Origin: Lawsonibacter asaccharolyticus | Lineage (GTDB): Bacteria > Bacillota > Clostridia > Oscillospirales > Oscillospiraceae | Assembly (NCBI GenBank): GCA_003112755.1 | Contig: BFBT01000001.1 | Span: forward strand, 930,001 to 994,000 | Length of the DNA stretch: 64,000 bases | Direction of reading: 5' to 3' | Shown here: in pieces, positions 30,168 to 51,868 of the stretch | How positions within the stretch are numbered: the stretch's first letter is position 1 | How the letters are laid out: each line of letters starts with the position of its first letter | Notes under the pieces: model-generated | Told to the model about the DNA's origin: nothing | Databases searched by the model: none | Seen by the model: the letters and a program-made list of their open reading frames with translations, nothing else | Translations under genes and position numbers: made by a program

Positions 30168-33100
30168 TTAGGCCTCAATGCTCAGAGTAGCAGTCACGTC
30201 GCCGGTCACGTTTCCGATGGTCACTTCCACGGTAGCGGTAGCAACCTTAGGGGATACTCCGGCAACATCGATCTTGTAGTAGGTAGTGCCAGTCTGATAA
30301 TCGGCAGCACTGGTAACCTCGGTATAAGTGACACTGTCGTTAGTGGTGAACAGCTTACCGGCCTCCAAAGCTGCTTTGAAGTTCTCAAAGTTATCAAATA
30401 CACCGGAAGCGGTACCAGTAGCGTCACTCTTGACATAAGTCTGAGCAACGGCCTTTACACCTTCGGTCGTTACACCAGAGACTTTCACCTCAGTTTTGTC
30501 GCTCTCGATCTTCTTCCCAGCGGCCTGCGCAGCGGCAGTCTGCTGCTGCATGGTGACGGTAAACCCGTCCATGCCAGTTTTGATCTGAGCAGGGATCTCG
30601 CTGGTAAACTCCCAGCCAGCAGGAGCATTCAGGGTCAGGTCATAGCTCTGATAGTCATAGGAAACAGTCAGAGTTCCGTCCACCAGGGCGCGGACATAAT
30701 AGGTGGTGCCGGCCTTGGTCACAGTATTGCCTTCGCCGTCGACAGAGACAGTGGCAACAGTCTTGTTGGCGTCAGTTCCAGTGGGAACCACAGCCAGGGT
30801 GGTGTCCACAGGCACAGTGACGGTCTGGCCATTCACATAAGAAGTTCCATTGACGGTAACAACAGCGTCGGTCAGATTCAGGGTCAGGGTCGCCTGAGTG
30901 GCGGCAACGGGCTCAACCTCAGCCTTAACCTCTTCATTCTTGGTGACCTTGTTCAGAGTCACGGTGCGGGTCTCAGTGCCCTTGTTGTCAGTCCACTGAT
31001 AGCCGGTCTTGGGAGTCATCTTCACGGTGACATCCAGGTTCTTCTCGGTCAGGACCAGGCTCTTATTAGTCTCGCTGTTGCCGTTCTCATCGGTGATGGT
31101 GTACTCCACCTTGTCGCCATTGCTTACACTCACGGTGTAGGCAACGGGGGCATCGGTGCCCTTGACCTCAGTGATGCACACGCCCATCAGGATCTTGCCG
31201 TCCAGGACATAGGTGACCTTGTCGTTGCCGTCGTCCTTGATGCGGCCGATGGTGGACTTGGTCAGGTCGTCGCCGTCGAAGCGGGCAACCACCACGTCCT
31301 CGTCATAGGCGTAGGTCTTATAGTTCTGGCCGGCGGCATCGCCGATGCCGATGACCTCGTCGTCCTCGCCCTCGGTGCCGACACCATTATCCACGTGCCA
31401 ATCGGTGAAGGTATCGTCATAGTCGGTGACAAAGCCGTCCTTGTTGTAGGTCAGGCCGCTGAGCACCTTGATATCGTCGGTCCCGATGGTCTTGAAGAAG
31501 TCATAGGCGTCGCCGTCGCGGACCTTCAGCTTGACGATCTCGCCGCCGACCATGGCCTGGTACTCATAGTACTTGGTGTTGGTCTCGTTGTCCTTCTGGG
31601 CCTTGGCGCCGGTGTCGCCCACCACGAAGATGACTTCGTCGTCGCCGTCCACGTTGGCGTTCTCGATGTAGACCACCTTGGCCACGCCGCCCTTGTCGAA
31701 GACAACGGCGTTGGTGTCCGCGTCACCCTTCACGTCGGGCACATTCTTGATGCCGGTGTAGACGGTGTAGTCGTCGCCGTCGTACAGCAGGAAGATAGTG
31801 CTGCTGTTGGCATAGTAGTCGTCGGTCGCAAAGATCTTCATGGCGGAGGTGCCGGACTTGATCTCCAGACCGGTGGCGTTGAAGGTATCATCCTTCAGGT
31901 CGATGCGGTTGTCGCTTCTCTTGGTCAGAGTGTACAGGCCGTCGCTGTCCTTGGAGTAGGACACGATGTAGCCCTCCAGAGCCTCACGGGCCTTCTGAGT
32001 GCTATCATACTTGTCCGTGCTGTCGGAATCCAGGTCCACCTTCAGCTTGGTGGCGTCGGTGAGCAGCAGGGTGGCGCCGAAGTCGGCGTCATCGCCGTAC
32101 TTGTCGTTGGCGGAGCCAACGCCCACCACGTAGGCGTAATCCTGAGCCACGGCGTCAGCGTCCAGATGGATCACATAGCCATAGGCGTCCAGATAGGCCA
32201 CGGTCTCGGCGTCCACATCATCGGTGTCCAGCTTGTCGCTGGCATCCATGTTCTTGGAGTAGGAGTAGCTGGTGCCGTCCAGGGAGAAGTTGTCCTTGTC
32301 CTTCACCTTGGTGACAGTGCCTTCCACGGACTCAGCCTTGACAACAGACTGGATCTCGTCGTTGGCGTAGGTGTAGACGACCACGTCGTCCTCCGCAAAA
32401 GCGGTGGTAGCAAACTCGTCGTCGCTGGCATCGGCGGGGCCGTCCACCAGGTCGGACAGGGTGATGGTGCCGTCCTTCTCATCGACCTTGTAGACCTCAG
32501 CCACATAGCTGTCGATGACGGAGACGGTAACTTCCTTCTCCTTGGAGTCAACATAGACCTGAGTCAGAACGCCGTTGCCGGTCACGTTCTCGCCAGCGGC
32601 CTCCTTCAGGAAGCAGTCAGTGCTGGTACGGTTGTCATACAGGTCGTTGCCGTCGAAGGAGTACTCATTGGCCTCGCCGTTGGTGTAAACGGTCCAGTCA
32701 TAGTCCTGAGCGGCAGTGCGGCCCACATCGTTGTACAGGGTCTTGGAAGAGACCTTGGCAGTGTAGGTGTGGGTAGCGGTGTCGGCCATGCTGATGATGA
32801 TGTCGTCGTCAGCGATGCCCTTGTAGCTGTCGGGGATGTTGCCCTCGTCGTCCAGAGACACGTTGGCCAGGGAGCCGGTGCCCCACACGGTGCTGGGACG
32901 GCCGAAGTCATCCTCGTCATTCATGTACACCAGGTCGAAGTTCTTGTAGCCCAGGGTCTGCTTGTAGTCGAACTTCACGCCGTTGGCCCAGGTGCTGCCG
33001 GTGTTGAAGTAGATGTTGAAGGTGTCGTTGTACTCAACGGTGACAGCCTTGGTCAGGGCGTTGAACACCAGCTCGGCCACGTTGTCGCGGGTCAGGCCGG

Positions 33101-33638
33101 CATTGGCGGTCAGCTTCAGATCGCCGTACATGCCCAGCTCAGTGCCCTTGGCGGTGGCGGCCAGCATCCAGTCGTTGCCGAAGTCAGTGGCGCTCTGGAA
33201 GTAGCCCAGAGTGCGGCACAGCATCAGCACGGCCTGCGCGGTGGTCACGGTGGCGCTGGGGTCGAACTTGCCGTCGCCCACACCGGCCACGATGCCCAGG
33301 CTGGCGCACAGGTTCACATAGCCCTCCGCCCAGTCGGGGACGTCGGTGAACACGCTGGTCTCCGCGAACTGGTTGACGTTCACACCGGCGCCATACAGCA
33401 TGGTGCAGATGATGACCGCCATCTCGGCGCGGGTGACTACGTTCTCGGGACCAAAGGACCCGTTCTCGTAGCCGTCGAACACGCCGATCTCGGCGGTGAC
33501 CGCCACGGCGTCCTGATTGACGATCTTATCCTTATCGGTAAAATCGTCGATGCCCTTAGCGCTGGTTCCGACCATCATCATGCCCAGGAGCATGGCGGAA
33601 GCCAGAGCAACGCTGAGAGCGCGCTTCAGGTTTCTCAT
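30168..33638 (-). CDS. SLH-domain surface (S-layer-like) protein 1
   Basis: A 1156-residue exported protein. The signal peptide (residues 1-27, LSVALASAMLLGMMMVGTSA) is followed by three SLH repeats (about 30-205, with FTDVPDWAEGYVNLCASLGI, VTRAEMAVIICTMLYGAG, and LTRDNVAELVFNALTKAV) that bind secondary wall polymer. The long body is very acidic, rich in Asp, Tyr, Thr and Val. The last 250 residues look like Ig- or repeat-type beta domains (TLNLTDAVVTVNGTSYVNG). The N-terminal 205 residues are nearly the same as in SLH protein 2, but the bodies differ. The ATG at 33638 follows AAAGGAGG, and a near-consensus promoter lies 100 bp upstream. Confidence 0.92.
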   Translation of the reverse strand: MRNLKRALSVALASAMLLGMMMVGTSAKGIDDFTDKDKIVNQDAVAVTAEIGVFDGYENGSFGPENVVTRAEMAVIICTMLYGAGVNVNQFAETSVFTDVPDWAEGYVNLCASLGIVAGVGDGKFDPSATVTTAQAVLMLCRTLGYFQSATDFGNDWMLAATAKGTELGMYGDLKLTANAGLTRDNVAELVFNALTKAVTVEYNDTFNIYFNTGSTWANGVKFDYKQTLGYKNFDLVYMNDEDDFGRPSTVWGTGSLANVSLDDEGNIPDSYKGIADDDIIISMADTATHTYTAKVSSKTLYNDVGRTAAQDYDWTVYTNGEANEYSFDGNDLYDNRTSTDCFLKEAAGENVTGNGVLTQVYVDSKEKEVTVSVIDSYVAEVYKVDEKDGTITLSDLVDGPADASDDEFATTAFAEDDVVVYTYANDEIQSVVKAESVEGTVTKVKDKDNFSLDGTSYSYSKNMDASDKLDTDDVDAETVAYLDAYGYVIHLDADAVAQDYAYVVGVGSANDKYGDDADFGATLLLTDATKLKVDLDSDSTDKYDSTQKAREALEGYIVSYSKDSDGLYTLTKRSDNRIDLKDDTFNATGLEIKSGTSAMKIFATDDYYANSSTIFLLYDGDDYTVYTGIKNVPDVKGDADTNAVVFDKGGVAKVVYIENANVDGDDEVIFVVGDTGAKAQKDNETNTKYYEYQAMVGGEIVKLKVRDGDAYDFFKTIGTDDIKVLSGLTYNKDGFVTDYDDTFTDWHVDNGVGTEGEDDEVIGIGDAAGQNYKTYAYDEDVVVARFDGDDLTKSTIGRIKDDGNDKVTYVLDGKILMGVCITEVKGTDAPVAYTVSVSNGDKVEYTITDENGNSETNKSLVLTEKNLDVTVKMTPKTGYQWTDNKGTETRTVTLNKVTKNEEVKAEVEPVAATQATLTLNLTDAVVTVNGTSYVNGQTVTVPVDTTLAVVPTGTDANKTVATVSVDGEGNTVTKAGTTYYVRALVDGTLTVSYDYQSYDLTLNAPAGWEFTSEIPAQIKTGMDGFTVTMQQQTAAAQAAGKKIESDKTEVKVSGVTTEGVKAVAQTYVKSDATGTASGVFDNFENFKAALEAGKLFTTNDSVTYTEVTSAADYQTGTTYYKIDVAGVSPKVATATVEVTIGNVTGDVTATLSIEA
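33335..33449 (-). repeat. 115-bp inverted identical repeat, copy A (inside SLH gene 1)
   Basis: Compared base by base, this stretch is identical to 48548-48662 read on the opposite strand. It codes for the middle of the first SLH repeat region. The surrounding 5' coding sequence is similar but carries many differences, so the perfect block stands out. Confidence 0.95.
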
Positions 33639-33740
33639 TGGATATTCCTCCTTTTATATTTGGCAAATGAGAGCTATTTTCTTGAATTTTAGGGGTTTTA
33701 CCAAAATCAGGAAAGTACAACTCCCCTTGCCTGTGTGTGT

Positions 33741-33769
33741 ATGATATCTCAAAAGCTCGAAATCGTCAA
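33741..33769 (-). promoter_or_regulatory. Strong promoter of SLH gene 1
   Basis: On the minus strand, TTGACG (33764-33769), 17 bp, TATCAT (33741-33746), giving a leader of about 95 nt. Confidence 0.8.
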
Positions 33770-33894
33770 GCGGCCGGAGCAAGATGTAACAAAACGGTAA
33801 CATTGCGTCGGCTTTGTTACAGAGGGCCTTTGAGGGGGGCCGGCGCCCCCAAAAAGAGGGTCCTTCCTTATATATTATCATGAGGCGGCGCAGG

Positions 33895-34430
33895 GTTGTA
33901 CGCGGGGGTGCAACTTGGGGGAGGGAGCTGGGGGCAGGGGCGTTTTCGGTCTCTCCGCAGGGGCGCGCTTTGCGCCCCCGCCTCTGGCATATCCTGTGGG
34001 TGGGACGGAGGAAGGAGGACCCCTCATCCGCCGCGGCTCGCGCCGCCACACCTTCCCCCCACAGGGGGAAGGCTTTGGGGGCGGCTGGAAGCCTGCGGGA
34101 GATCTTGGGCCTCTGCGCAGGGGCGGGGCTTGCCCCCGCCTGTCTCTGGCATGCTCTGTGACTGGTACGGGGGGAGGAGGACCCCTCATCCGTCGCGGCT
34201 CGCGCCGCCACACCTTCCCCCCTGTGGGGGGAAGACTTTTGGGGCAGCTGGAAGCCTGCGGGAGATCTTGGGCCTCTGCGCAGGGGCGGGGCTTGCCCCC
34301 GCCTGTCTCTGGCATGTTCTGCGACTGGTATGGGGGGAGGAGGACCCCTCATCCGTCACGGCTCGCGCCGCCGCACCTTCCCCCCACAGGGGGAAGGCTT
34401 TTGGGGCGGCTGGAAGCCGCCCCGCATGAG
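33895..34430. repeat. Tandem array of about 162-bp GC-rich palindromic units
   Basis: The word ACCCCTCATCCG begins at 34019, 34181 and 34344, a period of 162-163 bp. Each unit contains GGCTCGCGCCGCC, a CCTTCCCCCC/GGGGGAAGG palindrome, a GGCTGGAAGCC segment, GGGCGGGGCTTGCCCCCGCC and a CTCTGGCATG word. A degraded partial unit precedes 34019 and the last is truncated at about 34420. Copies are about 90% alike by eye. The open frames crossing it are by-products of the repeat. It resembles non-coding palindromic repeats of gut Clostridia rather than a CRISPR. Confidence 0.85.
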
Positions 34431-34479
34431 TGCAGCTCCCCTGACAGAAAAGGAGGCGGCCTAAGCTATTAAACGGGCA

Positions 34480-34508
34480 TTGACTTTCCTGGTAATTTCA
34501 GGTATAAT
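34480..34508 (+). promoter_or_regulatory. Promoter of the AT-rich two-gene island
   Basis: TTGACT, 17 bp, TATAAT, about 78 bp before the first gene. Confidence 0.85.
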
Positions 34509-34585
34509 AGATAGCACATTATGAGCTTGGAAGTGGCCTTTTGAAGTGACCAAACGGTCCGCCATTACAGCGTGGAGGGTAATTT

Positions 34586-34825
34586 ATGTACTTGAATCAA
34601 CGTACTCGTGATACCCTAGAAAGAATCATCGGAAAATCTGCCGACGATCTCAAGAAAATGGATCTGATTGAAGAAAAGAGTTTTGTGGAAGAAAAAACAG
34701 GAAAAAATTTGATTTTTTCTAAAAAAATGGATTCCAGAATGACCGGACGCGGAAATCCGCTTATTATTCGCCGCCGTATTTCTACTATGAGCGATATTGA
34801 TCAAATGATAGCAAGGATGAAGTAA
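34586..34825 (+). CDS. Small charged protein of unknown function, first gene of a two-gene island
   Basis: A 79-residue, basic, cytosolic protein (LNQRTRDTLERIIGKSADDL at the start; RGNPLIIRRRISTMSDIDQM near the end). No family is recognised. Its size and its position 1 bp before a larger partner gene resemble an antitoxin or adaptor, but no DNA-binding fold is evident. Base composition is much lower in GC than both flanks. The ATG at 34586 follows GGAGGG. Confidence 0.6.
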   Translation: MYLNQRTRDTLERIIGKSADDLKKMDLIEEKSFVEEKTGKNLIFSKKMDSRMTGRGNPLIIRRRISTMSDIDQMIARMK

Positions 34826-34826
34826 T

Positions 34827-35462
34827 ATGACTGGCAGCACCACAGTCGACAGCAATTTTCTCCTGGCACACAAAGAACAATTAGACGAAGTGTTCCAAGT
34901 CTATTTAGATGATATCAATCCGTTTATCGTTCAATTTGAAATATTAAAAAACGAATTTCCGATTGAGCTTCAAAATGAGATCCGCGCAATGTATGGGCAT
35001 CTGGCCAGGGCCGCAATAGCTGCCACTCCAGAAGAAGCAGAGCGTAATCTTGCGAAAATCAAATCACATACCAAGCGTGCGCTCTTAGATTGCTACAAAT
35101 ACAGCTGCATCATTTTTTCTGATCAGTATGAGGAGTTTTTCCGTGATTATCATGGGGTGGATCTGACTTATTTGGAGGATGGAAACTTTCTGAGACGTGT
35201 CCATCAGTTGAGGGAGGCCGCTACGGAGCAGTTGAAAGCTGCCAAATGTGCGGAAACCTCCAACATTTCGGAGGATACCCTGTTTGAACTATATCAAGAG
35301 GCATATAATCAGTTCGCAGATATAGACCAAATCCTTGAAGAGGCGCGAAAGCACGCTGATTTCCTCAAACATAAGGCGTCTATGAAATCAATCGGCAGTG
35401 CAGTCAGCCTGGTCGTGGGACTCGCCAGCCTTGGGCTGGCCCTTCTTACTCTGGTCTTTTGA
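34827..35462 (+). CDS. Helical protein with C-terminal membrane segment, unknown function
   Basis: A 211-residue protein, mostly alpha-helical and rich in Glu, Ala and Leu, with a likely coiled coil (about residues 50-180: EEAERNLAKIKSHTKRALLD; FADIDQILEEARKHADFLKH). It ends in a C-terminal hydrophobic segment (SAVSLVVGLASLGLALLTLV, about 190-209). No signal peptide, so probably tail-anchored. No family is recognised. It begins 1 bp after the upstream stop, so the pair is translationally linked. AT-rich composition between a repeat array and a strong terminator suggests an acquired cassette; a defence or toxin role is only a guess. Confidence 0.6.
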   Translation: MTGSTTVDSNFLLAHKEQLDEVFQVYLDDINPFIVQFEILKNEFPIELQNEIRAMYGHLARAAIAATPEEAERNLAKIKSHTKRALLDCYKYSCIIFSDQYEEFFRDYHGVDLTYLEDGNFLRRVHQLREAATEQLKAAKCAETSNISEDTLFELYQEAYNQFADIDQILEEARKHADFLKHKASMKSIGSAVSLVVGLASLGLALLTLVF

Positions 35463-35497
35463 GCACAGTTTTATCTTTAGATATCAATCAATTTTTA

Positions 35498-35532
35498 AAT
35501 GCGCTGCAGGGATTTCCCTGCAGCGCATTTTT
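35498..35532. terminator. Bidirectional terminator between convergent genes
   Basis: AAATGCGCTGCAGGG pairs perfectly with CCCTGCAGCGCATTT, with T-runs on both strands. It serves the two-gene island and the response regulator. Confidence 0.92.
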
Positions 35533-36209
35533 TATTCCTTCTCGAACCGATAGCCCACCCCGCGGAGAGTGACGATCCGGTCGCTGTACGGGACGATGGC
35601 ACAGCGGATATGCTGGATATGGGTGTCCAGGGTGCGGGTGTCAGTGGAGAGCTCCCCGCCCCAGATGATGTCCAGCAGGCGCTTGCGGGAGAAGGCCACG
35701 TCCGGGTGGCTCATCAGCACGGTGAGCAAGTCGAACTCCCTGGGCGTCAGGTTGATCTGGCGGCCGTCCACCTCCACCCGCCGGGCAGTCAGGTCCAGCA
35801 CCAGCCCGCCGCTGCGGAGCACCTCCGCCTCCTCCGAGGCCAGGGTGCTGCACCGCTTCAGGATGGCCGAGATCCGCAGGAGCAGCTCCCGCGCCGAAAA
35901 GGGCTTGGTCATATAGTCGTCCGCCCCCAGCTCCAGGCCATGGATGCGGTCCTCCGCCGTGTTTTTGCTGGACAGGATCAGCACCGGGATGGCGGAGAAG
36001 GTGCGGACCGCCTTCAACACCGTAAAGCCGTCCATCCCCGGCAGATTCACCGCCAGGACCATGAGATCAAATGCGTTCTGCTGCCGGGACAGGCTGAGGG
36101 CGGTCTCGCCGTCCCCCGCCTCTGTCACATCATAGCCCTCCATCCGGGCATGTTTTGCGATCCGGGCGCGCACACCCGTATCCCCGTCTACGACTAAGAT
36201 CCGTTTCAT
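35532..36209 (-). CDS. Orphan OmpR-type response regulator with degenerate receiver
   Basis: A 225-residue protein: receiver domain (1-115) plus a winged-helix DNA-binding domain (about 130-225: NLTPREFDLLTVLMSHPDVA, then RTLDTHIQHIRCAI, then TLRGVGYRFEKE). The receiver lacks its phospho-acceptor. The usual LLDVxLPGMDG reads VLAVNLPGMDG, putting Ala at residue 53. The acidic pair is also altered (VVDGD rather than VDDD). The conserved Ser (ILSSK) and Lys (MTKPF) remain. No kinase gene is adjacent. It probably acts without phosphorylation. A GGAGG site precedes the ATG at 36209. Confidence 0.88.
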   Translation of the reverse strand: MKRILVVDGDTGVRARIAKHARMEGYDVTEAGDGETALSLSRQQNAFDLMVLAVNLPGMDGFTVLKAVRTFSAIPVLILSSKNTAEDRIHGLELGADDYMTKPFSARELLLRISAILKRCSTLASEEAEVLRSGGLVLDLTARRVEVDGRQINLTPREFDLLTVLMSHPDVAFSRKRLLDIIWGGELSTDTRTLDTHIQHIRCAIVPYSDRIVTLRGVGYRFEKE

Positions 36210-36260
36210 CGGGCGACCTCCTCCGTGTCTTGTTGTCCCCCGCCCCTCCTCCGGCGGGGT

Positions 36261-37247
36261 TCAGCCGTACTGCTCCAGCACGGCCTTCAGCTTCCGGCGG
36301 TATTCCTCCGCCGCTTTTTGGGGCGCGATCAGCTCCACATTGTCCTCCAGCCCGAACAGCCAGCCGAAAAACTGCGGGCTGAGCACCAGAGGCAGCGTGA
36401 CGGTGAAGTGGTCCTCGTCCTCCGGCACCAGGATCACGTCCTGGCCGAACCGGTCCCACACCACCCCCGCCATGTGGCTGCGGCAGCGCAGGGTAACGCT
36501 GGCCTCCTCCCCGCTGTACATGCCGAAGTGCTTCTGGCCATAGGCGGCCACATCAAAATCCGGGTAGCGGTCCTCCCCCTCCCGGGGCAGGCCGGTAACC
36601 ACGATCTCCGCCATCTTGTCCACCCGGTAGTGGCGCATCTCCTGGTTGGAGATGTCGTAAGCCACCAGATAGTAATTCTCGCTGTTCCAGATCAGGCCGT
36701 AGGGAGAGACGGCGTAACGCCGCCCCTCCCGCCGAAAGACCTTGTTCCGGTGCATGTCGTAGTCAAAGTAGCGGAAGGTGATGCTCTTCCGGGCCGAGAG
36801 GGCCGTGTGGAGCTTGTCTACATTATAATATATGCTCTCGTTCATGGCCTTGACCCGGCCGCTGACGTACACCTGCCGCTGGAGCTGGCGGGCCTGGTGG
36901 CTGCTCGCCAGCCCCTCCAGCTTGCGGATCAGGGCGTCGCTCTTCTTCCGGGTGATGAAGCGGGAGGACTGCACCACGTCCACCAGCAGCTTCAGCTCCG
37001 GCAGCTCAAACTCCCGCCGGCCCACGAACCAGCCCGGGGACCGGCCCTTCCGGCTCTGCACGTCCAGGCCGAACAGCCGCAGGGCCTCCAGATCGTCGTA
37101 GACGCTCTTCCGCTCCGCCCGGATGCCCCGCAGGTCCAGTTCCCCGATCAGCTGGGGGACGGTGATGGGGTGCTCCTCGTCGGTGCGCTGGAGCAGGATC
37201 TGATACAGATACAGCAGTTTCAGCTTTTGATTGGGACTCTTCGCCAT
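36261..37247 (-). CDS. WYL-domain transcriptional regulator
   Basis: A 328-residue DeoR-like regulator. The N-terminal winged helix (residues 1-60) contains KLLYLYQILLQRTDEEHPIT and VPQLIGELDLRGIRAERKSV. The WYL sensing domain (about 140-230) shows ITFRYFDYDMHRNKVFRREG, YAVSPYGLIWNSENYYLVAY and MRHYRVDKM, and a C-terminal WCX-like domain follows. Family members bind nucleic-acid-type or other small ligands. Gap to the response regulator is 51 bp on the same strand. The target is unknown. Confidence 0.88.
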   Translation of the reverse strand: MAKSPNQKLKLLYLYQILLQRTDEEHPITVPQLIGELDLRGIRAERKSVYDDLEALRLFGLDVQSRKGRSPGWFVGRREFELPELKLLVDVVQSSRFITRKKSDALIRKLEGLASSHQARQLQRQVYVSGRVKAMNESIYYNVDKLHTALSARKSITFRYFDYDMHRNKVFRREGRRYAVSPYGLIWNSENYYLVAYDISNQEMRHYRVDKMAEIVVTGLPREGEDRYPDFDVAAYGQKHFGMYSGEEASVTLRCRSHMAGVVWDRFGQDVILVPEDEDHFTVTLPLVLSPQFFGWLFGLEDNVELIAPQKAAEEYRRKLKAVLEQYG

Positions 37248-37314
37248 GGGTCATCCTCCTCATTCCGGTGATGCACTCAGCATACCGGAACCTGTGTCCC
37301 ATATAACGGACTAT

Positions 37315-37647
37315 TCACTCCCAGGCGGCCCACACCTCGGGACAGTAGCCCACCGTGGCCTGCCTGCCGTTTCGCACGATGGGGGTGCGCAGCATGGTCT
37401 GGTCCTCCCACAGCCGGTCCAGCTTGTCCTGGTCATAGGCCAGATGCTGGAAAAGAGGATAGTCTGGGTGCTTGGGGTCGGCCAGGGCCTCCAGCCCCAC
37501 CGCGTTCTTCACGCTGGACAGCTCCCCCCGGCTCATGCCGTACTTCACCACATCCACAGACTGAAATCTCACCCGGCGCTCCTTGAACCAGCGCTCCGCC
37601 TTTTTGGTATCAAAGCATTTGGACCTGCCAAAAATCTGTATGTTCAT
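37315..37647 (-). CDS. ArsC/Spx-family thioredoxin-fold protein
   Basis: A 110-residue protein of the arsenate-reductase-like/Spx fold (MNIQIFGRSKCFDTKKAERW at the start, with a single active-site Cys at residue 11; RTPIVRNGRQATVGYCPEVW at the end with the conserved cis-Pro region). It lacks the CxxC of Spx and is close to YffB/ArsC-like proteins of unknown substrate. A good promoter (37761-37789 on the minus strand) serves it alone. Confidence 0.78.
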   Translation of the reverse strand: MNIQIFGRSKCFDTKKAERWFKERRVRFQSVDVVKYGMSRGELSSVKNAVGLEALADPKHPDYPLFQHLAYDQDKLDRLWEDQTMLRTPIVRNGRQATVGYCPEVWAAWE

Positions 37648-37760
37648 TACGATATCCTCCGGAAGCGCGGGCCGCCTCGTCCCCTGCCCCCGCCGGGCAG
37701 GGCGGCCTGCATGGTCCCTGTGTCCTTCCTCAGGCTGTTAAATTATGTATATCTAAGTAT

Positions 37761-37789
37761 AACATATTCCCTCCCAGGGCACAAGTCAA
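37761..37789 (-). promoter_or_regulatory. Promoter of the ArsC-like gene
   Basis: On the minus strand, TTGACT (37784-37789), 17 bp, TATGTT (37761-37766). Confidence 0.65.
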
Positions 37790-37906
37790 AACCGCTCCGG
37801 AACCGGTTTATTTCCCCGGCGGCTGGTCATACTAGGAGATGCTACAAATACAGGGCCGTTCCCGCTCCGCCCCGGCGGAGCCCGGCCGGAAGGGTGGAAA
37901 CACATC

Positions 37907-40357: not shown

Positions 40358-40364
40358 GTATTTT

Positions 40365-43269: not shown

Positions 43270-43375
43270 GCTCTCGTGCTCCTTTGCTCTATTTTGTAAC
43301 CAAATTGTAACTTTTATGCAGTGCAAAGGCAAGCTGTAAGTTTTGGTGCTCCGTTTTCTTCCAGGCAGTCAGGCA

Positions 43376-43410
43376 TAAAAGGGGCGGGCCGCATCTGCGG
43401 CCCGCCCCCC
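43376..43410 (-). terminator. Terminator of the DUF4358/SGNH lipoprotein pair
   Basis: On the minus strand, GGGGCGGGCCGCA and its complement form a long stem followed by TTTTAT, just after the DUF4358 stop. Confidence 0.85.
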
Positions 43411-43423
43411 AGTCTATCTCCCT

Positions 43424-43900: not shown

Positions 43901-44877
43901 GTCTCAGTTCCCTCCGGATAAAGTGTTTCGAAGTCCACAGTATGGACTTTCAGATACTCCAGCCACTGCTTGCAGTAGTCGCTCTTCAGATGCACCCCGT
44001 CCTTGCTGGCCTCCTCGGGCAGTTCCCCGTTCTCATTGGCAAATTCGGAATACAGGTCCAGAAACACCACCTGCTTTTCCTCTGCCGCTTTCTGCATCAG
44101 GCCGTTGTACACCCGGAGGTGCTCGTTGGTCAGATAGCTGGGGCCGCCAGATGCCGCCACCACCGACTCGTTCAGAGGGATCAGGCCCTGGATGTAGATG
44201 ACCGCGTCGGGCTGGCAAGCCCGGATAGCATCGATGGCGTCACAGTATGCCTGGTAAAAGCCCTCGTCGTTGTAGTAGCCCAGCTCATTGACGCCCAGGG
44301 ACAGGTACACCTTTCCATATTCGCCCAGCTCCAGGGCCTCCAGCAGCGTATAGGCGGTCCCATCAATCGTGATCGCCTTTTTCTCCGCCAGCTTGAAGAT
44401 GGACAGGCCGTTGGAGGTCAGGTTGGTCCCAGTCCCGATCCCACTGTAAAGCAGGAAGCCGTCCGTGCGGGAGTCCCCCACAAAAGCGGCGTCCTCAAAG
44501 TAGGTGTTGTCCACTGCCGGACTCTCCGGCGCGGGCTGGGAGAAGTCGTAGCTGCTCTCTCCGCTGTCTCCCACATGGGCAGGCTTGTCCTCCGGGCTGT
44601 TTGGGACGTTCTGCCCCTGTTCTGATCCGCCGGACAGGGTGGAGGGCTCTCCCTCCGGCACAGCTCCGGCAGGGCCCTCTCCAGGCACATTATGATCCGG
44701 CGCCCCGGAGGGGTCAGCCGCCGGGATACCGGCCTCCGGCTGAGCGCTCTGGGCAGGCGGGTCAGCCGACTGTCCCTGGGCGGAGCTGCCTGCGCCGGGG
44801 CTGCCGCCGCACCCGGTCAGGCTGGCCGAGATAGCCGCTGCCATCAGGAAACAGAGAAAGGAAGGAAAACGCTTCAT
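43897..44877 (-). CDS. SGNH/GDSL-hydrolase lipoprotein
   Basis: A 326-residue lipoprotein. The signal peptide with lipobox SLTGC (Cys23) is followed by a disordered linker of about 100 residues rich in Pro, Ser, Gly and Glu. The SGNH domain then shows block I FVGDSRTDGF (about 133-142, nucleophile Ser), SLGVNELGYY (block III Gly/Asn), GLIPLN, and a late DGVHLKSDYCKQW with the Asp-His pair. It would remove or transfer acyl groups on surface glycans. It overlaps the DUF4358 gene by 4 bp. The MBOAT acyltransferase often found with such pairs is absent here. Confidence 0.85.
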   Translation of the reverse strand: MKRFPSFLCFLMAAAISASLTGCGGSPGAGSSAQGQSADPPAQSAQPEAGIPAADPSGAPDHNVPGEGPAGAVPEGEPSTLSGGSEQGQNVPNSPEDKPAHVGDSGESSYDFSQPAPESPAVDNTYFEDAAFVGDSRTDGFLLYSGIGTGTNLTSNGLSIFKLAEKKAITIDGTAYTLLEALELGEYGKVYLSLGVNELGYYNDEGFYQAYCDAIDAIRACQPDAVIYIQGLIPLNESVVAASGGPSYLTNEHLRVYNGLMQKAAEEKQVVFLDLYSEFANENGELPEEASKDGVHLKSDYCKQWLEYLKVHTVDFETLYPEGTET

Positions 44878-44928
44878 CAGATTACCTCCAAAAATTCCAG
44901 TCGCATGATTCTCTCTCTTTGCCCCGTC

Positions 44929-45381
44929 TCAGGACCCGGCCGGCCGGTGGTACAGCCGAGGAAACACCGTCCGAAATACAGACGAGGCCAGCATGGCTCC
45001 CACCGCCAGGGCCGCCGCCATCCCAAAGGTGTGCAGCAACTCAGCCAGGAACCGGTCTGTATCTCCCGCCACGCAGTAGCTCATGGCGTAATAGATACCT
45101 CCCCCCGGAACCAGGGGGAGAAGTGCTACCAGCAGATAGCCGGTCACCGGGCAGCGGCGCAGCCGGGCCATGATCTCCGAAAAGACGCCTATGGCCACCG
45201 CAGCCAGGAATGCGGCCACGATGCTGCTGCCCGCCAGCAGATACACCAGCCAGCCCAGTCCTCCCCCGAAGCCGCAGATCAGCTTTCCTACGCCGTGGAT
45301 GTTGAAGACCAGTGTAAAGCCTACGCAGGCCAGAAAGGCCCAGAGGCAGGGCAAGACATAGTCCAGAAAAATTCGCTCCAT
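44929..45381 (-). CDS. ThrE-type exporter, small membrane subunit
   Basis: A 150-residue protein with four to five membrane segments and the ThrE_2 pattern (ACVGFTLVFNIHGVGKLICG; GLGWLVYLLAGSSIVAAFLA; TGYLLVALLPLVPGGGIYYA with the conserved PGG). It supplies the second half of a split threonine/serine exporter; the larger subunit ends 21 bp upstream. The start at 45381 is an ATG preceded by AGGTGG. Confidence 0.88.
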   Translation of the reverse strand: MERIFLDYVLPCLWAFLACVGFTLVFNIHGVGKLICGFGGGLGWLVYLLAGSSIVAAFLAAVAIGVFSEIMARLRRCPVTGYLLVALLPLVPGGGIYYAMSYCVAGDTDRFLAELLHTFGMAAALAVGAMLASSVFRTVFPRLYHRPAGS

Positions 45382-45402
45382 CCCGATCCACCTCCAACGG
45401 TC

Positions 45403-46164
45403 CTAAAGCATCTGGCCGATGGCCAGCCCCACCACCGTGCCCAGGGCAATGGCCGAAGCCACCAGGATGGCGTCCGCTGTCCGGCTCAGGCCCGAGATGA
45501 TGTCCCCGGCCATGATCTCCCGCATGGCGTTGGTCAGCGCCACACCGGGCACCAGCACCATCAGCACACCGATAGTCACAGTATCCACGTCGTATCCGAA
45601 GCCCAGGCGCACCAGCAGCAGGGAGAGCAGCGAGCCCACTGTGCTGCATACTACGGTGCGGAAGAAGCTGTTGCTCCCAATGAACCGCCCCCCATATAAA
45701 AGGCAGATCCCTACCGCCAAGCCGCACACGAAAGCACACAGGCCGTCCAGGAAATGACCTCCGAATAGAAGGGTGAAAAAAGCGGGGGCCAAACCATACC
45801 CCATCAGTACCTGATGGGACGAGTAGCGGGGATACCCTCTCTCCAGGGCGGAGACCAAGCTCTGGGCATCCTCCAGTGGTGGGACCTGGCTGCATAGATG
45901 CCGGCACAGGTCGTTGCACCGCTCCAGCAGCTCAATGTCTGTCCCATGGCCCGGGATGCGCCGCATCCGGGTGATAGGATGCCCCTGGGGCGTAGTCACG
46001 CTGACGATGATGCAATTCGGGATGGCAAACACCTCCGGCCGCTCCAGGCCATAGGCATTCAGCACCCGATGCATGGATTCCTCCACCCGGTAGATCTCCG
46101 CCCCGCTGGCCATCAGCTGGTATCCCAGATCCGTGGTCAGATTGAGCAGTCTGTCATAGTCCAT
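45403..46164 (-). CDS. ThrE-type threonine/serine exporter, large subunit
   Basis: A 253-residue protein. The soluble N-terminal domain (1-115) resembles ThrE cytosolic regions (QLMASGAEIYRVEESMHRVL; NCIIVSVTTPQGHPITRMRR). Five membrane segments follow, with GVLMVLVPGVALTNAMREIM and DIISGLSRTADAILVASAIA. With the small subunit it makes a complete ThrE-like exporter for Thr/Ser or small metabolites. The ATG at 46164 follows GGAGGAGG; the frame upstream lacks a ribosome site. Confidence 0.9.
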   Translation of the reverse strand: MDYDRLLNLTTDLGYQLMASGAEIYRVEESMHRVLNAYGLERPEVFAIPNCIIVSVTTPQGHPITRMRRIPGHGTDIELLERCNDLCRHLCSQVPPLEDAQSLVSALERGYPRYSSHQVLMGYGLAPAFFTLLFGGHFLDGLCAFVCGLAVGICLLYGGRFIGSNSFFRTVVCSTVGSLLSLLLVRLGFGYDVDTVTIGVLMVLVPGVALTNAMREIMAGDIISGLSRTADAILVASAIALGTVVGLAIGQML

Positions 46165-46345
46165 AGCCTCCCCCTCCTCCTGCAACAGAATACCGGGTTT
46201 CACTGCCGGATGCAAGCAACAATTTTGTTACAATCCCCGCGCCACGGGGCCATGCAGAGAGAAGGGGCCCTTCTACCTAGTTCAGACGGTCATGACGCCA
46301 GAAAAGTTTTCTGTTGGTCGATTTTTTCTTTTTAAACAGGCAGAA

Positions 46346-46388
46346 GCGGCTGAGATCTCCGCGCAGAGACCCCAGCCGCTTTTTCTTT
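46346..46388. terminator. Hairpin downstream of the MATE gene
   Basis: AGCGGCTG pairs with CAGCCGCT around a loop of about 20 nt. The long T-run follows on the plus strand; on the minus strand, where the MATE transcript ends, the T-tract is weak (TTCTGCCTGTTT). Confidence 0.5.
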
Positions 46389-47822
46389 TCACTGCTCCGT
46401 CGCTTCCGGATGGTGTCCATCCACAGACAGATAGGAGGGACCGCTCCCCTGTACCTTGGCGTACGCCTTTTTCCGGATCGCCAGGAACATGATGATGTGG
46501 ACCGCTCCTGTGATTGCCCAGGTGATGGGATAAGAGATATACAGGTTCCCTGGAACCGGGTCCAGGGGGAACACGAACCAGACCCACAGCAGGCGCAGCA
46601 CACAGGAGCCCAGCAGGGAGACCACCATGGGCACGATAGAATAGCCGATCCCTCTTAGGATGCCCACCATGGTATCCATAATACCACAGATGGCGTACAG
46701 CCGGCCGATATAGGACATCCGCACCAGCCCCTGCTGGATCACGTCCGGCTCCCCAGGTGCGTAGATGCCAAGGAGCTGAGAGCCGAAGAAAAAGGCCAGG
46801 TTACCCAGGATCAGGCCGGTCAGAATCACAAAGCCCTGGCAATAGAGGGCCACCTTGTCCACGCGGTCGCATTTGCCGGCACCATAGTTCTGCCCGCTGA
46901 AGGTCAGGGCGCTCTGATAGAAAGCGTTCATGGCCGCGTAAACGAAGCCCTCGATATTCTGGGCTGCGGCGGACCCCGCCATTACCGTGTCGCCGAAGGA
47001 GTTGATGGAGGACTGGATCACCACATTGGACAGGGAGAAGATGACGCCCTGGAAGCCGGCGGGCAGGCCCACCTGAAAGATCCGACCGATGACCCGCTTG
47101 TTCAAGTGCATCCGGTGAAGGTTCAGGTGCAGCGCCCCGTGCTCCCGCATCAGGCAGCGCAGGATCAGCCAGGCAGAGACATACTGGGAAATGCTGGTGG
47201 CCATGGCGACACCTGCCACATCCAACCTGCAAACGATGACAAAGAACAGGTTCAGCACCACATTGAGCACACCTGCAGCCAGCAGGAAATAGAGCGGGCG
47301 CTGGGTGTCTCCCTTGGCGCGCAGGATGGCACTGCCGAAGTTGTACACCATGGTGGCCGGCATGCCGATGAAGTAAATCCTCAGATACACCGAGGCCAGC
47401 CCGATCACATTTTCCGGGGAGGACATCCACTCCAGCATTTGGCGGGCCATAATGACGCCGAAGATCATCAAGACCACGCCGCTGATCATAGCCAGCAGGA
47501 TTGAGGTGTGCACAGCGCGGTTGGCCTCGGCCTTCCGTCCGGCGCCCAGGTCCTGGGCGACCACCACATTGGCACCCACCGACAGACCTACAAACAGGTT
47601 GACCAGCAGATTGATCAGCGCGGTGTTGGAGCCCACAGCAGCCAGGGACGCCTTTCCGCAGAACTGGCCTACCACCACCACATCCGCCGCATTGAACAGG
47701 AGCTGCAGCAGGCTGGAGGCCATCAGCGGCAGCGCAAACAGCAGGATCTTGTTGGCAAGCGTCCCGTTGCACATATCGATTTCATAGCCCTTGCTCTGTC
47801 TTCTCATGGGTCGATCCGCCAT
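46389..47822 (-). CDS. MATE-family efflux transporter
   Basis: A 477-residue protein with about 12 membrane segments in two related halves (LFALPLMASSLLQLLFNAAD; GANVVVAQDLGAGRKAEANR; the second half begins IFQVGLPAGFQGVIFSLSNV and includes AAQNIEGFVYAAMNAFYQSA and SGQNYGAGKCDRV). It would export drugs or cationic metabolites using an ion gradient. The ATG at 47822 is very close to its AAAGGA site; a second in-frame ATG at 47807 is possible. A disordered tail of about 20 residues ends the protein. Confidence 0.92.
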   Translation of the reverse strand: MADRPMRRQSKGYEIDMCNGTLANKILLFALPLMASSLLQLLFNAADVVVVGQFCGKASLAAVGSNTALINLLVNLFVGLSVGANVVVAQDLGAGRKAEANRAVHTSILLAMISGVVLMIFGVIMARQMLEWMSSPENVIGLASVYLRIYFIGMPATMVYNFGSAILRAKGDTQRPLYFLLAAGVLNVVLNLFFVIVCRLDVAGVAMATSISQYVSAWLILRCLMREHGALHLNLHRMHLNKRVIGRIFQVGLPAGFQGVIFSLSNVVIQSSINSFGDTVMAGSAAAQNIEGFVYAAMNAFYQSALTFSGQNYGAGKCDRVDKVALYCQGFVILTGLILGNLAFFFGSQLLGIYAPGEPDVIQQGLVRMSYIGRLYAICGIMDTMVGILRGIGYSIVPMVVSLLGSCVLRLLWVWFVFPLDPVPGNLYISYPITWAITGAVHIIMFLAIRKKAYAKVQGSGPSYLSVDGHHPEATEQ

Positions 47823-48358
47823 TCCTTTCCATCTATCCCGAAAGCTTCAGACCTTCTCTGGTCACACTCTATCTCTACTATATAATCCTTAACACACTCC
47901 CGCCCACTTTTCAAGGCCCTTCTTCCCATTTCTCTGAAATTTCCTCTATTCGCCTGTCCGCCGCTAAGTTTTTCACAAAATTTCCGTTACTTTTACAAGG
48001 TTCCTACTCCGCTTCTCTCCTTGTCCCTCAAGCGCAGGAGATGCTCCGGCCTGCGGGACTCCCTATGTGCTATGCAATTTGAATTTTCGTCTACCAAAAG
48101 TCTACCAAAAAAGGGCGGCGGTGGCCTGGAGTTTCAGGGCCTTGCTGCCCCTTCTGTTTTCATGTGTCTACCAAATGTCTACCAGGGAAACTTTTTAGGC
48201 GTAATCTCGGGGATTTTTCCCTTGATCTCCCCCTTTTTATAACCAATTCCTCCTGTGTCAGAAGTGTTGTACAGGCATAGTGGGCCGAAATGTTCTGGAA
48301 AAGGCCCAGTTTGTCAGAAAACAGCGACTTTTGTCAATATAAAAAGGAGGAATATCCA
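47823..48358. other. Upstream region of SLH gene 2 with paired TCTACCAAA repeats
   Basis: No gene is seen in these 536 bp. GTCTACCAAAA is directly repeated at 48089-48110 (11-bp period), and the same word recurs as a second pair at 48166-48184 (12-bp period). This resembles paired protein-binding sites or a remnant of a recombination locus. A GGGCC/GGCCC hairpin lies at 48282-48307. Unlike SLH gene 1, no convincing sigma-A promoter is found before the ribosome site at 48346. Confidence 0.5.
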
Positions 48359-51300
48359 ATGAGAAACCTGAAGCGTGCTCTCAGCCTGGCTCTGGCTTCC
48401 GTTATGCTCCTGGGCATGATGGTCGTGGGCTCCAGCGCTAAGGGTATCGACGATTTCACCGACAAGGCCGAGATCGTCAATCAGGATGCCGTGGCGGTCA
48501 CCTCTGCCATCGGCATGTTCGAGGGCTACGAGGACGGGTCCTTCGGCCCCGAGAACGTAGTCACCCGCGCCGAGATGGCGGTCATCATCTGCACCATGCT
48601 GTATGGCGCCGGTGTGAACGTCAACCAGTTCGCGGAGACCAGCGTGTTCACCGACGTCCCCGCCTGGGCGCAGGGCTATGTGAACCTGTGCTCCAGCCTG
48701 GGCATCGTGGCCGGCGTGGGCGACGGCAAGTTCGACCCCAACGCCACCGTGACCACCGCGCAGGCTGTGCTGATGCTGTGCCGCGCCCTGGGCTACTTCC
48801 AGAGCGCCGCTGACTTCGGCAATGACTGGATGCTGGCCGCCACCGCCAAGGGCACCGCTCTGGGCCTGTATGGCGACCTGAAGCTCACCGCCAACGCCGG
48901 GCTGACCCGCGACAACGTGGCTGAGCTGGTGTTCAACGCCCTGACCAAGGCCGTGCCTGTTCAGTACAACGAGCTGCTGGGTGTGTACTACAACGAGAAC
49001 CAGGGCATCATCTACTCCCTGGAGTTCAACTACCTGCAGACCCTGGGCTACAAGAACTTCGACCTGGTCTATAAGACCGACACCGAGACCATCTATGGCC
49101 GTCCCGCCACCACCTGGGGCACCGGCTCTTACAATGTCAAGACCGATGCCGGCGACACCAGCAAGACCGATACTCTGACCGAGGACGGCGGCCTGATCGC
49201 CTCCATGGTCCGCATGCTGGACAAGGACGAGATCATCACCGTTCCCAACACCCCCACCTACACCTATACCACCGGCACCGATGAGGACGACGTGTACAAG
49301 GATCTGGGCAAGTCCGTCTGCGACGAGGACGATTATGAGTGGACCGTCTATGTCAACGGCGAGAAGGTCTATGACGAGGGCACCGATGTCGCTGACACCG
49401 TCTATGACAACAGCGTGGGCAACGACGTTCCTGAGCGGGGCGAAGATGCTGACTATCAGTACACCGGCAAGGGCACCGTCACCGAGATCTATGTGGACGA
49501 CGCTGACGCCACTGTCACTGTGGTCGCCATCAACTACTACATGGGCCAGGTCTCCAAGGTGAAGACCGACGACGACGGCGAGTACATCAACGTCAAGGCC
49601 CTGTCCAATCTGAGTCAGGACGACGCCAAACTGGACGACCGCGACTTCTATGTCGAGGGCTATGAGGAGGACGACTACATCGTCTTCACCATCGACCAGA
49701 ACGAGGACGACGACTTCTACATTGCCGAGGTCATCACTCCCGAGGTCGCGACCGGTGAGGTCAGCCGCGTGGAGAACGACCGCGACAGCGACGACACCTA
49801 TCTGAAGCTGGACGACGGCACCAAGTACCCCTACTCCGGTGCATACCACATCGTCTACGATCTGGACAGCAACACCGATGAGCACCCCGAGTTGGGTGAG
49901 GACTACGACCTGTACCTGGATCCCAACGGTTACGTTCTGGGCTTCAAGCTGGCCGGCGAGTCCGAGACCAAGTACCTGTACGTTCAGGACTCCGACGAGG
50001 AGCTGCGCGACTGGGTCGCCCGTGTTGACCTGGCCGACGGCACCAGCCCCAAGGTGGAGCTGAAGGACACCTACAAGAATACCGATGGAGACAGTGTTGA
50101 TATTGCTTGGGACAAGGACGCCTCCGAGCACGTTATCAAGAACGCCACCAATATCGACGAGCGCGTCTGGGCCTACACCGTCAGCGAGAGCAGCAATGTC
50201 TACTCCCTGAAGGAGGTCAACGACAAGTACCTGCCCGCCAAGGTGGATGACGCCTTTGTTGCTGATCCCGATGCCGAGATCAAGAACGGCAAGGCCTATG
50301 TCTCCCAGGGCGACAACGAGTTCATCGTTGACAAGCAGACCATCTTCGTGGACACCATGAACAACGTGGCCTACATCGGCTATGACGAGGTGCCCAACGT
50401 GGAGAAGGCCCAGCTGGCTTATGTCATGGACGGCCGCGTGGCTGAGATCGTCTTCATCCTGGATGGCGAGATCTATGACGAGGACAGCACCTACTTCTAC
50501 CTGACCAGCACCAAGCGCGAGTCCCTGAAGTACGACGGCGACTACTACTGGGAGTACTTCAACGCCTATGTGGACGGCCAGAAGCAGTCCGTGTTCATCG
50601 ACCAGGATCTGAATGCGCTGAAAGAGGGCACCCTGTACAAGGCTGTGAAGACCACCGATGAGCAGTACATCACCGAGTACCGGGAGGTCGCGCTGGAGGA
50701 CAACGTGGTCAACGCCACCGGCGATGACGCCTTCTGGCTGACTACCGCCCAGTCCAAGGAAGTCAAGTTCGACACCGACGACGAGACCGTCTTCGTCTAC
50801 GTGGAGATGGAGCCCAAGAAGCCCGCTGAGTTTGTAAAGGCTGGTTCCTATGCCGCTTATACGGGCGGCTGGAAGTACTCCGTCTCTGAGGGCGGCATCA
50901 GCGACATGATCCTTGAGGATGAGCCCGAGGAGCAGGACGGCATCGACTATCTGACCTACGTCACCGTGGTGGAGAAGGACGAGGAGTACGCCGAGCTGGT
51001 ATATATCATCTATAAGCCCGTGGTGGACCCCATCATCTCTTACACCGTGACTGTCGATGTTGAGAACGCCGACGTGACCATCGACGGCGAGCCCTACACC
51101 GGGCCTGTGAAGGTTGTTGCCGGCACCAAGATCACCGTGGCCGCCACCGCCAAGCCCGGCTACTCCTTTGCTGCGGACCCGAGCGGCGAGTACACTATTA
51201 CTGGAGACCGGACGATCAACGCGAAGGCCACCGCCAACGGCCGCACCATCACTGTGAATGGTAATGCTACTGGCGACAAGGACAGCGCTAAGACCGATGA

Positions 51301-51868
51301 GGAGGTTGTGGTGACACTGACCCCCAAGGAGGGCTACACCATCACTTCTGTTGATTGCAATGTTACCGCCAAGATCGACACCAAGAACTGGACCGTCACC
51401 ATTCCCGCCGGTCTGGAGAACGTGGTAATCGACGTGGATACTGATCCTGACGTGTACACTGTGACTTATGATGAGACCAGCGAGTGGTGGAGCGGTCGTC
51501 ATATGATCAAGACCAGCGGCGAGACCACCATTGAGAGAGACGGTTCTATCACTGTTGAGCTGACCACTGATTTTATCGGTGCGACCAACGCCCAGGTGAA
51601 GGTGACCGGCGCCACTGGCGAGTTCACGAAGGTGAACGGCGTGGATCAGAAGACCGACAGCACCACCATCAGCACTGAAGCTGAACTGAAGGTCCTCCAG
51701 AACCAGTTTGGCACCATCTATTCCGACGCCGCTTGTGAGAATCCTGTGGCCGGAGCTGTCACCCCTAGCATGACTGTGTATTGGATCACCGTCGAGGGCC
51801 AGGCCGCTGTCTGGACCGGGACCATCAGCAATCCCACTGGTAATGTGACTGTTGAGCTGGATGTTTAA
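48359..51868 (+). CDS. SLH-domain surface (S-layer-like) protein 2
   Basis: A 1169-residue exported protein. The signal peptide (LSLALASVMLLGMMVVGSSA) and three SLH repeats (to about residue 205) closely match SLH protein 1. The leader around the ribosome site (AAAGGAGGAATATCCA) is also the same. The body is a different sequence, strongly acidic and rich in Asp, Glu and Tyr. The last 170 residues contain InlB-type beta repeats (TVDVENADVTIDGEPYTGPV; AAATAKPGYSFAADPSGEYT-like). It is anchored to the wall through its SLH domains. The ATG at 48359 is used; upstream in-frame codons have no ribosome site. No clear promoter is visible, so expression may depend on recombination or another factor. 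Confidence 0.92.
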   Translation: MRNLKRALSLALASVMLLGMMVVGSSAKGIDDFTDKAEIVNQDAVAVTSAIGMFEGYEDGSFGPENVVTRAEMAVIICTMLYGAGVNVNQFAETSVFTDVPAWAQGYVNLCSSLGIVAGVGDGKFDPNATVTTAQAVLMLCRALGYFQSAADFGNDWMLAATAKGTALGLYGDLKLTANAGLTRDNVAELVFNALTKAVPVQYNELLGVYYNENQGIIYSLEFNYLQTLGYKNFDLVYKTDTETIYGRPATTWGTGSYNVKTDAGDTSKTDTLTEDGGLIASMVRMLDKDEIITVPNTPTYTYTTGTDEDDVYKDLGKSVCDEDDYEWTVYVNGEKVYDEGTDVADTVYDNSVGNDVPERGEDADYQYTGKGTVTEIYVDDADATVTVVAINYYMGQVSKVKTDDDGEYINVKALSNLSQDDAKLDDRDFYVEGYEEDDYIVFTIDQNEDDDFYIAEVITPEVATGEVSRVENDRDSDDTYLKLDDGTKYPYSGAYHIVYDLDSNTDEHPELGEDYDLYLDPNGYVLGFKLAGESETKYLYVQDSDEELRDWVARVDLADGTSPKVELKDTYKNTDGDSVDIAWDKDASEHVIKNATNIDERVWAYTVSESSNVYSLKEVNDKYLPAKVDDAFVADPDAEIKNGKAYVSQGDNEFIVDKQTIFVDTMNNVAYIGYDEVPNVEKAQLAYVMDGRVAEIVFILDGEIYDEDSTYFYLTSTKRESLKYDGDYYWEYFNAYVDGQKQSVFIDQDLNALKEGTLYKAVKTTDEQYITEYREVALEDNVVNATGDDAFWLTTAQSKEVKFDTDDETVFVYVEMEPKKPAEFVKAGSYAAYTGGWKYSVSEGGISDMILEDEPEEQDGIDYLTYVTVVEKDEEYAELVYIIYKPVVDPIISYTVTVDVENADVTIDGEPYTGPVKVVAGTKITVAATAKPGYSFAADPSGEYTITGDRTINAKATANGRTITVNGNATGDKDSAKTDEEVVVTLTPKEGYTITSVDCNVTAKIDTKNWTVTIPAGLENVVIDVDTDPDVYTVTYDETSEWWSGRHMIKTSGETTIERDGSITVELTTDFIGATNAQVKVTGATGEFTKVNGVDQKTDSTTISTEAELKVLQNQFGTIYSDAACENPVAGAVTPSMTVYWITVEGQAAVWTGTISNPTGNVTVELDV
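48548..48662 (+). repeat. 115-bp inverted identical repeat, copy B (inside SLH gene 2)
   Basis: Identical in all 115 positions to 33335-33449 on the opposite strand. The pair are in inverted orientation, 15.1 kb apart, within divergent genes, so recombination between them would invert the segment carrying both upstream regions. Confidence 0.95.

What the first reader, a model, noticed from the sequence alone, without database searches (positions are those of the whole stretch)
30168..51868. Divergent SLH surface-protein genes with an identical inverted block: possible S-layer switching locus
Seen: two large SLH-protein genes face away from each other (starts at 33638 and 48359). Their first 205 or so residues and their ribosome-site regions are closely alike, but their bodies are unrelated. 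Within this, 33335-33449 and 48548-48662 are identical over 115 bp in inverted orientation, although flanking coding DNA differs at many silent sites. Gene 1 has a near-consensus promoter and gene 2 has none that I can see. Known: Campylobacter fetus sap genes switch S-layer proteins by inverting a promoter segment between conserved 5' ends. Inference: recombination here would invert about 15 kb and exchange which body is joined to the strong promoter. The silent-site identity suggests recent recombination or gene conversion.
Basis: partly seen in the sequence, partly recalled or inferred. Interest (0 to 1): 0.87.

Follow-up and report, generated by a model that had tools for sequence, protein, structure and literature searches.

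The report
S-layer coat-switching gene family
A bacterium of a gut lineage appears to keep one switched-on gene for its protein coat plus eight silent spare versions, and to swap which version sits behind the single promoter by recombining their shared front ends; the same arrangement recurs across its relatives.

Summary
The genome (Lawsonibacter-like) has nine SLH genes sharing about 650 bp of 5' sequence. Gene 1 alone has the promoter and the minus strand; the other eight, on the plus strand, carry instead GTCTACC box pairs around a hairpin. Box pairs (up to two mismatches) occur in 27 of 37 same-genus genomes; the promoter module in 31 of 41, once each in 29. Of 89 SLH starts, 53 have boxes, 31 the promoter, 5 neither, none both. 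Database proteins include apparent recombinants: gene-1 N-termini on four other bodies, gene-1 bodies on cassette N-termini, and mosaics fitting switch and return. The 115-bp block lies in the commonest junction interval. Best reading: one expression site and silent cassettes, exchanged by homologous recombination between inverted 5' ends. It works like Campylobacter fetus sap and Lactobacillus slp but belongs to neither. No inverted junction and no expression data were seen; most recombinants are single unnamed records, so cassette conversion and assembly chimeras remain possible. The papers searched do not describe it.

The parts
30168..33638 (-). Gene 1: SLH surface protein, 1156 aa, the only copy with the promoter module (proposed expression site)
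33741..33800 (-). Promoter module TTACnGTTnnnTTACA-15-TTGACG-17-TATCAT; one match in this genome, and present at the boxless copy in relatives
33025..33667 (-). Shared 5' region of gene 1 (ribosome site, signal peptide, SLH repeats)
33335..33449 (-). 115-bp block identical to gene 2; lies inside the commonest junction interval (residues 59-102)
48359..51868 (+). Gene 2: SLH surface protein, 1169 aa, a box-bearing (presumed silent) cassette
48330..48972 (+). Shared 5' region of gene 2
48548..48662 (+). 115-bp block identical to gene 1 (inverted)
48089..48107 (+). Upstream GTCTACC box pair (11-bp direct repeat) of the cassette header
48108..48165 (+). Hairpin between the box pairs (terminator-like; -25.5 kcal/mol, z -2.6 in this copy)
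48166..48184 (+). Downstream GTCTACC box pair
33450..48547 (.). Segment predicted to invert between gene 1 and gene 2; Pfam finds RNase J, nucleotidyl transferase, cell-wall hydrolase, GDSL, ThrE and MATE genes among the ORFs scanned, no recombinase
29498..30082 (+). Convergent partner gene of gene 1 (modelled as coiled coil plus beta sandwich; family has variable C-termini)
51931..52152 (-). Convergent partner gene of gene 2 (short form, 73 aa)

Best explanation
An S-layer-type (SLH) protein switching system with one expression site. Gene 1 sits behind the only copy of a conserved promoter module. Eight other genes carry the same RBS, signal peptide and SLH front end but lack that module, and have a box-hairpin-box header that probably insulates them from read-through. 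Homologous recombination between the inverted 5' ends of gene 1 and a cassette inverts the DNA between them. That places a different body behind the promoter and puts the old body behind a silent header. Shown: the nine-copy family, the single promoter module, mutual exclusion of promoter and boxes, orientation, and proteins with the expected recombinant N-termini. Inferred: silence of the cassettes, inversion as the physical route, RecA-type recombination, insulation by the header, and that E-type leads elsewhere still sit behind the promoter.
For: Nine copies, one unique in strand and upstream sequence. The box pair occurs 16 times in the genome, two per plus-strand copy and nowhere else, reversed control 0. 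The promoter module occurs in 31 of 41 genomes, once in 29, reversed control 0 of 41; of 30 loci examined, 20 had enough downstream sequence and 20 of 20 lead into an MRNLKR gene. In 89 starts boxes and promoter never coincide. Of 159 typed proteins whose body is not in the gene-1 cluster, 7 have a gene-1-type lead over at least 11 diagnostic sites (P0013, P0014, P0015, P0087, P0150, P0159, P0174) and P0192 over two, covering four body clusters; reciprocal forms are P0140, P0141 and P0144; P0123, P0131, P0135 and P0139 are mosaics that fit return trips; the last three diagnostic sites follow the body in 181 of 181 if P0144 (body 66% like gene 1) is counted with gene 1. In G007 the promoter copy and a boxed copy with a different body share about 440 bp with one mismatch, inverted; in G011 477 bp are identical, inverted, but the bodies there stay similar.
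Against: No inverted junction or second orientation of the same species was seen, and no expression data. They are 8 of 159, a minority. G012 has only 1 of 6 boxed copies opposite to the promoter copy, and G003 0 of 1 on that contig. Ten of 41 genomes gave no promoter match, eight of them with box matches (G002, G005, G006, G009, G018, G022, G025, G034); most of these assemblies are fragmented. Five of 89 starts have neither element. Hairpins fold poorly in 2 of 5 boxed G012 copies and weakly in G007. A 3' homology block exists too, so double exchange is possible. Over its first 600 bases gene 1 differs from the cassettes by 8-11%, so exchange in this lineage is infrequent or confined.
Confidence: 0.78

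Rival explanations
1. Cassette replacement by double exchange or gene conversion: the body at the expression site is overwritten using 5' homology (SLH front end) and 3' homology (5' end of the convergent partner gene), with no inversion.
For: The seven box-bearing copies with a partner share a 3' block of about 200-540 bp at 79-98%. E-c-E mosaics show conversion-like tracts. G012 and G003 have the promoter copy and boxed copies in direct orientation.
Against: Between gene 1 and the cassettes the 3' block is only 117-224 bp at 71-79%. Non-reciprocal replacement does not make a cassette lead on a gene-1 body, yet P0140 and P0141 have it. The promoter copy is opposite to every box header seen on its contig in G000, G007, G011, G010 and G017.
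Confidence: 0.12
2. Ordinary paralog family: each copy has its own regulated promoter (the boxes being operator sites), and homogenised 5' ends reflect only gene conversion or selection on the SLH region; no switching.
For: Boxes are 11-bp direct repeats, a spacing used by OmpR/PhoB-type regulators (recalled). SLH and signal peptide are under protein constraint.
Against: None of 53 boxed starts has the promoter module, and a hairpin lies between the box pairs in all eight own copies. In G011 and G012 homology to the promoter copy resumes 10-25 bp below its -10. Proteins join leads and bodies across the family.
Confidence: 0.06
3. The recombinant proteins are assembly chimeras and the family is static.
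For: Unnamed sources, 7 of 8 E-to-cassette forms single-member; the 115-bp identical block could mislead short-k assembly.
Against: Junctions of P0014, P0087, P0150 and P0192 fall where the longest own-genome identity runs are 25, 20, 32 and 18 bp (the other junctions outside the 115-bp block were not measured). P0144 appears in a record named Clostridium phoceensis (longest contig 294 kb). A shared start of about 440 bp on differing bodies is present in the single-contig genome G007.
Confidence: 0.04

Closest known systems
Campylobacter fetus sap S-layer locus
   Same: Several homologs with a conserved N-terminus (seen as a reference title), a marked sap promoter, and frequent exchange of homologs (passages; the inversion mechanism itself is recalled).
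   Different: Here the N-terminus is a signal peptide plus SLH, copies are spread over 925 kb, no sapCDEF secretion genes were found in the segment, and the other copies carry a box-hairpin-box header.
Lactobacillus acidophilus slpA/slpB segment
   Same: Active and silent S-layer genes interchanged by inversion of a chromosomal segment (passages and reference title).
   Different: Two genes there, nine here; different anchor (recalled); here the header and a convergent partner gene recur in relatives.
Bacteroides phase-variable S-layer promoter (BT1927)
   Same: Gut commensal, variable S-layer, reported roles in phage and complement resistance (passages).
   Different: There a promoter between inverted repeats flips on or off; here bodies appear to be exchanged, with junctions spread over the shared region.

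Membership tests
SLH surface (S-layer type) proteins | SLH repeats (PF00395) near the N-terminus | tested here: met
   68.1 and 62.4 bits, cut-off 20.8; the two PDB sequences matched at E 0.01 are SLH chains of an S-layer protein
SLH surface (S-layer type) proteins | Forms a crystalline surface lattice | not testable with these tools
   needs microscopy or protein extraction; the AlphaFold model of gene 1 is of low confidence (mean pLDDT 69.1)
Campylobacter fetus sap | One promoter and several promoterless homologs with a conserved 5' end | tested here: met
   (promoterless by sequence; not by transcript)
Campylobacter fetus sap | Invertible promoter-bearing segment observed in both orientations | tested here: inconclusive
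   orientation fits and recombinant proteins exist; inverted junction not seen
Campylobacter fetus sap | sapCDEF secretion genes with the locus | tested here: not met
   none among the ORFs scanned in the segment
Campylobacter fetus sap | RecA dependence (recalled) | not testable with these tools
   needs a mutant
Lactobacillus slp segment | Active and silent gene in inverted orientation | tested here: met
   (silence inferred)
Lactobacillus slp segment | Two-gene segment | tested here: not met
   nine genes
Recombinase-driven invertons | Fixed crossover site and linked site-specific recombinase | tested here: not met
   junction intervals vary; no recombinase by Pfam among the ORFs scanned in the segment, some of which have no Pfam match at all

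The most novel reading that the evidence does not exclude
A genus-wide coat-variation system in gut Oscillospiraceae whose silent cassettes are two-gene modules: a variable S-layer body and a convergent, hypervariable coiled-coil plus beta-sandwich partner. They are held silent by a dedicated box-hairpin-box insulator recognised by an unknown protein, so that each inversion moves an S-layer body together with its neighbouring partner gene.
Probability: 0.3. Interest if true: 0.92.

Novelty: new variant of a known kind. Interest (0 to 1): 0.82.

Why it matters
If right, a gut lineage carries programmed S-layer variation of the kind known from C. fetus and Lactobacillus, but larger and spread over the chromosome. 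The coat is the outermost surface met by phages, antibodies and neighbours, so strain differences in those interactions may reflect which body sits behind one promoter. It also makes predictions that can be tested from sequence: one promoter per genome, boxes marking silent copies, and countable junction reads.

Tried and rejected
A fixed-site recombinase: none among the ORFs scanned in the 15-kb segment, and junctions are not at one site. A known RNA element in window 27000-55000: Rfam found nothing at gathering thresholds. An early short-pattern probe of the window was empty and uninformative. NCBIfam gave nothing useful for the two proteins, the partner or three unknown ORFs. PHROGs gave only weak virion-structural matches for two of three partner proteins, and Foldseek no PDB match at E 0.001. 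Conserved synteny of the expression site was not found: of the window neighbours tested, RNase J recurred closely only near the G012 copy, and in a relation to the promoter that a simple inversion does not explain. Replication-strand bias as the cause of the common orientation was considered; GC skew in the window alone could not settle it. The idea that there is no 3' homology was dropped.

Full report
Check. Both genes, the shared front ends and the exact 115-bp inverted identity are as described. The block is longer than chance spacing of the 50 differences gives (0.0009 of 20,000 placements). The bodies are related, at 31% over 534 columns, rather than unrelated.

The family. A DNA search of the whole assembly (4.28 Mb, 7 contigs) with gene 1's 5' end found nine copies, plus one 35-bp match on contig 3 that I do not count. 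The copies lie at about 834, 848, 893, 963 (gene 1), 978 (gene 2), 1681, 1699, 1725 and 1758 kb. Gene 1 is the only one on the minus strand, and its upstream DNA is unlike the rest. The first 600 coding bases are 89-100% identical among all nine. The 240 bp upstream are 93-99% identical among the eight others but 31-33% to gene 1. Towards the C-terminus the proteins fall to 12-32% identity.

The header. The eight share GTCTACCAAANGTCTACCA twice, 77 bp apart. Allowing two mismatches there are 16 occurrences in the genome, all at these eight genes, and none for the reversed control. A hairpin lies between the pairs in all eight (z -1.9 to -5.9). In G012 three of five boxed copies examined have long, fully paired stems of different sequence (z -8.3 to -9.0), while two fold poorly (z -2.6 and -1.1). 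G003 and G011 fold well (z -3.8 to -6.4) and G007 weakly (z -1.8 to -2.4). Box matches occur in 29 of 60 genomes of one search: 27 of 37 in the genus (own included) and 2 of 23 elsewhere in the order; the reversed control had one match in each of 6 of the 60.

The promoter. Gene 1's promoter belongs to a fixed module, TTACnGTTnnnTTACA-15-TTGACn-17-TAnnnT, which I found by eye upstream of the boxless copies of G000, G003, G007, G011 and G012. Searched in 41 genomes with up to two mismatches it occurs in 31, exactly once in 29, twice in G024 and three times in G035; control 0. Ten had no match, eight of which do have box matches. I examined 30 of the 34 matches: 20 had enough sequence and all 20 lead into an MRNLKR gene; in the other 10 the contig ends 182-378 bp after the module's start. 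In 89 distinct starts with 450 bp upstream, 53 have a box pair only, 31 the promoter only, 5 neither and none both. By set: own 8 and 1; four relatives 20 and 4; named contigs 18, 18 and 5 neither; other loci 7 and 8. The last set, 15 starts, was fetched mostly by these very motifs, and the stretches of the four relatives were also picked by box and 5'-end hits; the own and named sets were picked by the 5' region only. In G011 and G012 homology between boxed and promoter copies resumes 10-25 bp below the -10.

Recombination. In G007 and G012 the promoter copy and a boxed copy share long starts and then diverge: about 440 bp with one mismatch, and 133 plus 30 bp one base apart. In G011 a boxed copy is identical over 477 bp and stays similar beyond. 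Three protein searches listed the best 120 of 3635, 1718 and 3064 hits, about 8000 candidates being scored each time. Of 249 distinct database proteins, 8 lacked the start and 69 had too distant a start; the other 172 plus the nine own were typed at 22 residues that separate gene 1 (E) from gene 2 (c). At least P0051 and P0066 are copies of own proteins and so count twice. E leads sit on 20 of 22 gene-1 bodies, 16 of them E throughout. They also sit on 8 of 159 others (P0192 for its first two sites only), covering four body clusters: 833 kb, gene 2, 1681 kb and one with no own member. The reciprocal form, c lead and E tail, is P0140, P0141 and P0144 (body 66% like gene 1). Four gene-1 proteins are E-c-E mosaics, as expected after switching away and back with a different crossover. 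Counting by hand, 8 of 19 switch points lie in residues 59-102, which contain the 115-bp block (residues 64-101). At four of the other junctions (P0014, P0087, P0150, P0192) the longest own-genome identity runs are 18-32 bp.

Orientation. On the promoter's own contig, box headers are opposite in 8 of 8 (G000), 6 of 6 (G007, two being remnants), 2 of 2 (G011), 1 of 1 (G010), 1 of 1 (G017), 1 of 6 (G012) and 0 of 1 (G003), read. For G010 and G017 only the box match is seen, not the gene behind it. The named locus L149 has 1 of 1 but may be the same species as G010. Copies within a genome are not independent, so I give no probability. Opposite orientation makes recombination an inversion instead of a deletion. 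G012 has the copy layout expected after one inversion with a near neighbour, but its RNase J lies on the wrong side for that to be the whole story.

Mechanism. Single expression site, cassettes without the promoter, crossover in shared front ends, inversion, new body expressed. Silence, inversion and the recombination enzymes are inferred. Cassette replacement through the 3' block is the main rival; the reciprocal products speak against it as the only route.

Partner gene. A convergent gene of one family lies 3' of 8 of the 9 copies and nowhere else in the genome at E 0.001. Its 5' end is conserved and its C-terminus variable; the model of gene 1's partner is a coiled coil plus beta sandwich (pLDDT 88.9).

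Literature. I saw search listings and passages only. A search for Lawsonibacter with S-layer found no paper, and the listings of the related searches showed none describing this system; most subscription papers are not held. One gut-inverton paper (PMC11892184) has no mention of S-layer, Lawsonibacter or Flavonifractor in its main text. Dworkin 1995 and Boot 1996 were seen only as references; details of the sap inversion beyond searches are recalled. The gut habitat is recalled for these names.

Noticed in passing
29498-30082 (+); 51931-52152 (-); 3' sides of six further own copies: A convergent gene family (N-terminus like HYGLSQWEASDKVERTDFNADNA, variable C-terminus) occurs in exactly 8 places in the genome at E 0.001, all 3' of SLH copies (8 of 9), and next to many relatives' copies. 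Model: coiled coil plus beta sandwich, pLDDT 88.9, no PDB match at E 0.001.
   Followed up: partly
33977-34418: Tandem repeats of about 163 bp upstream of the gene-1 promoter, part of a dispersed family with 48 matches in the genome.
   Followed up: partly
L253 2558-7680 (G035 C37): A separate MKNLKRV SLH family: one gene has the promoter, while a second has its -35 half lying inverted about 420 bp upstream, as if the promoter had been cut by a small inversion.
   Followed up: no
L106 and L109 (G007): Two box headers lead into no intact SLH gene, as expected of decayed silent cassettes.
   Followed up: partly
33741-33800: The promoter module carries TGTTAC repeats at a fixed spacing of 15 bp before the -35, possibly a dedicated activator site.
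   Followed up: no
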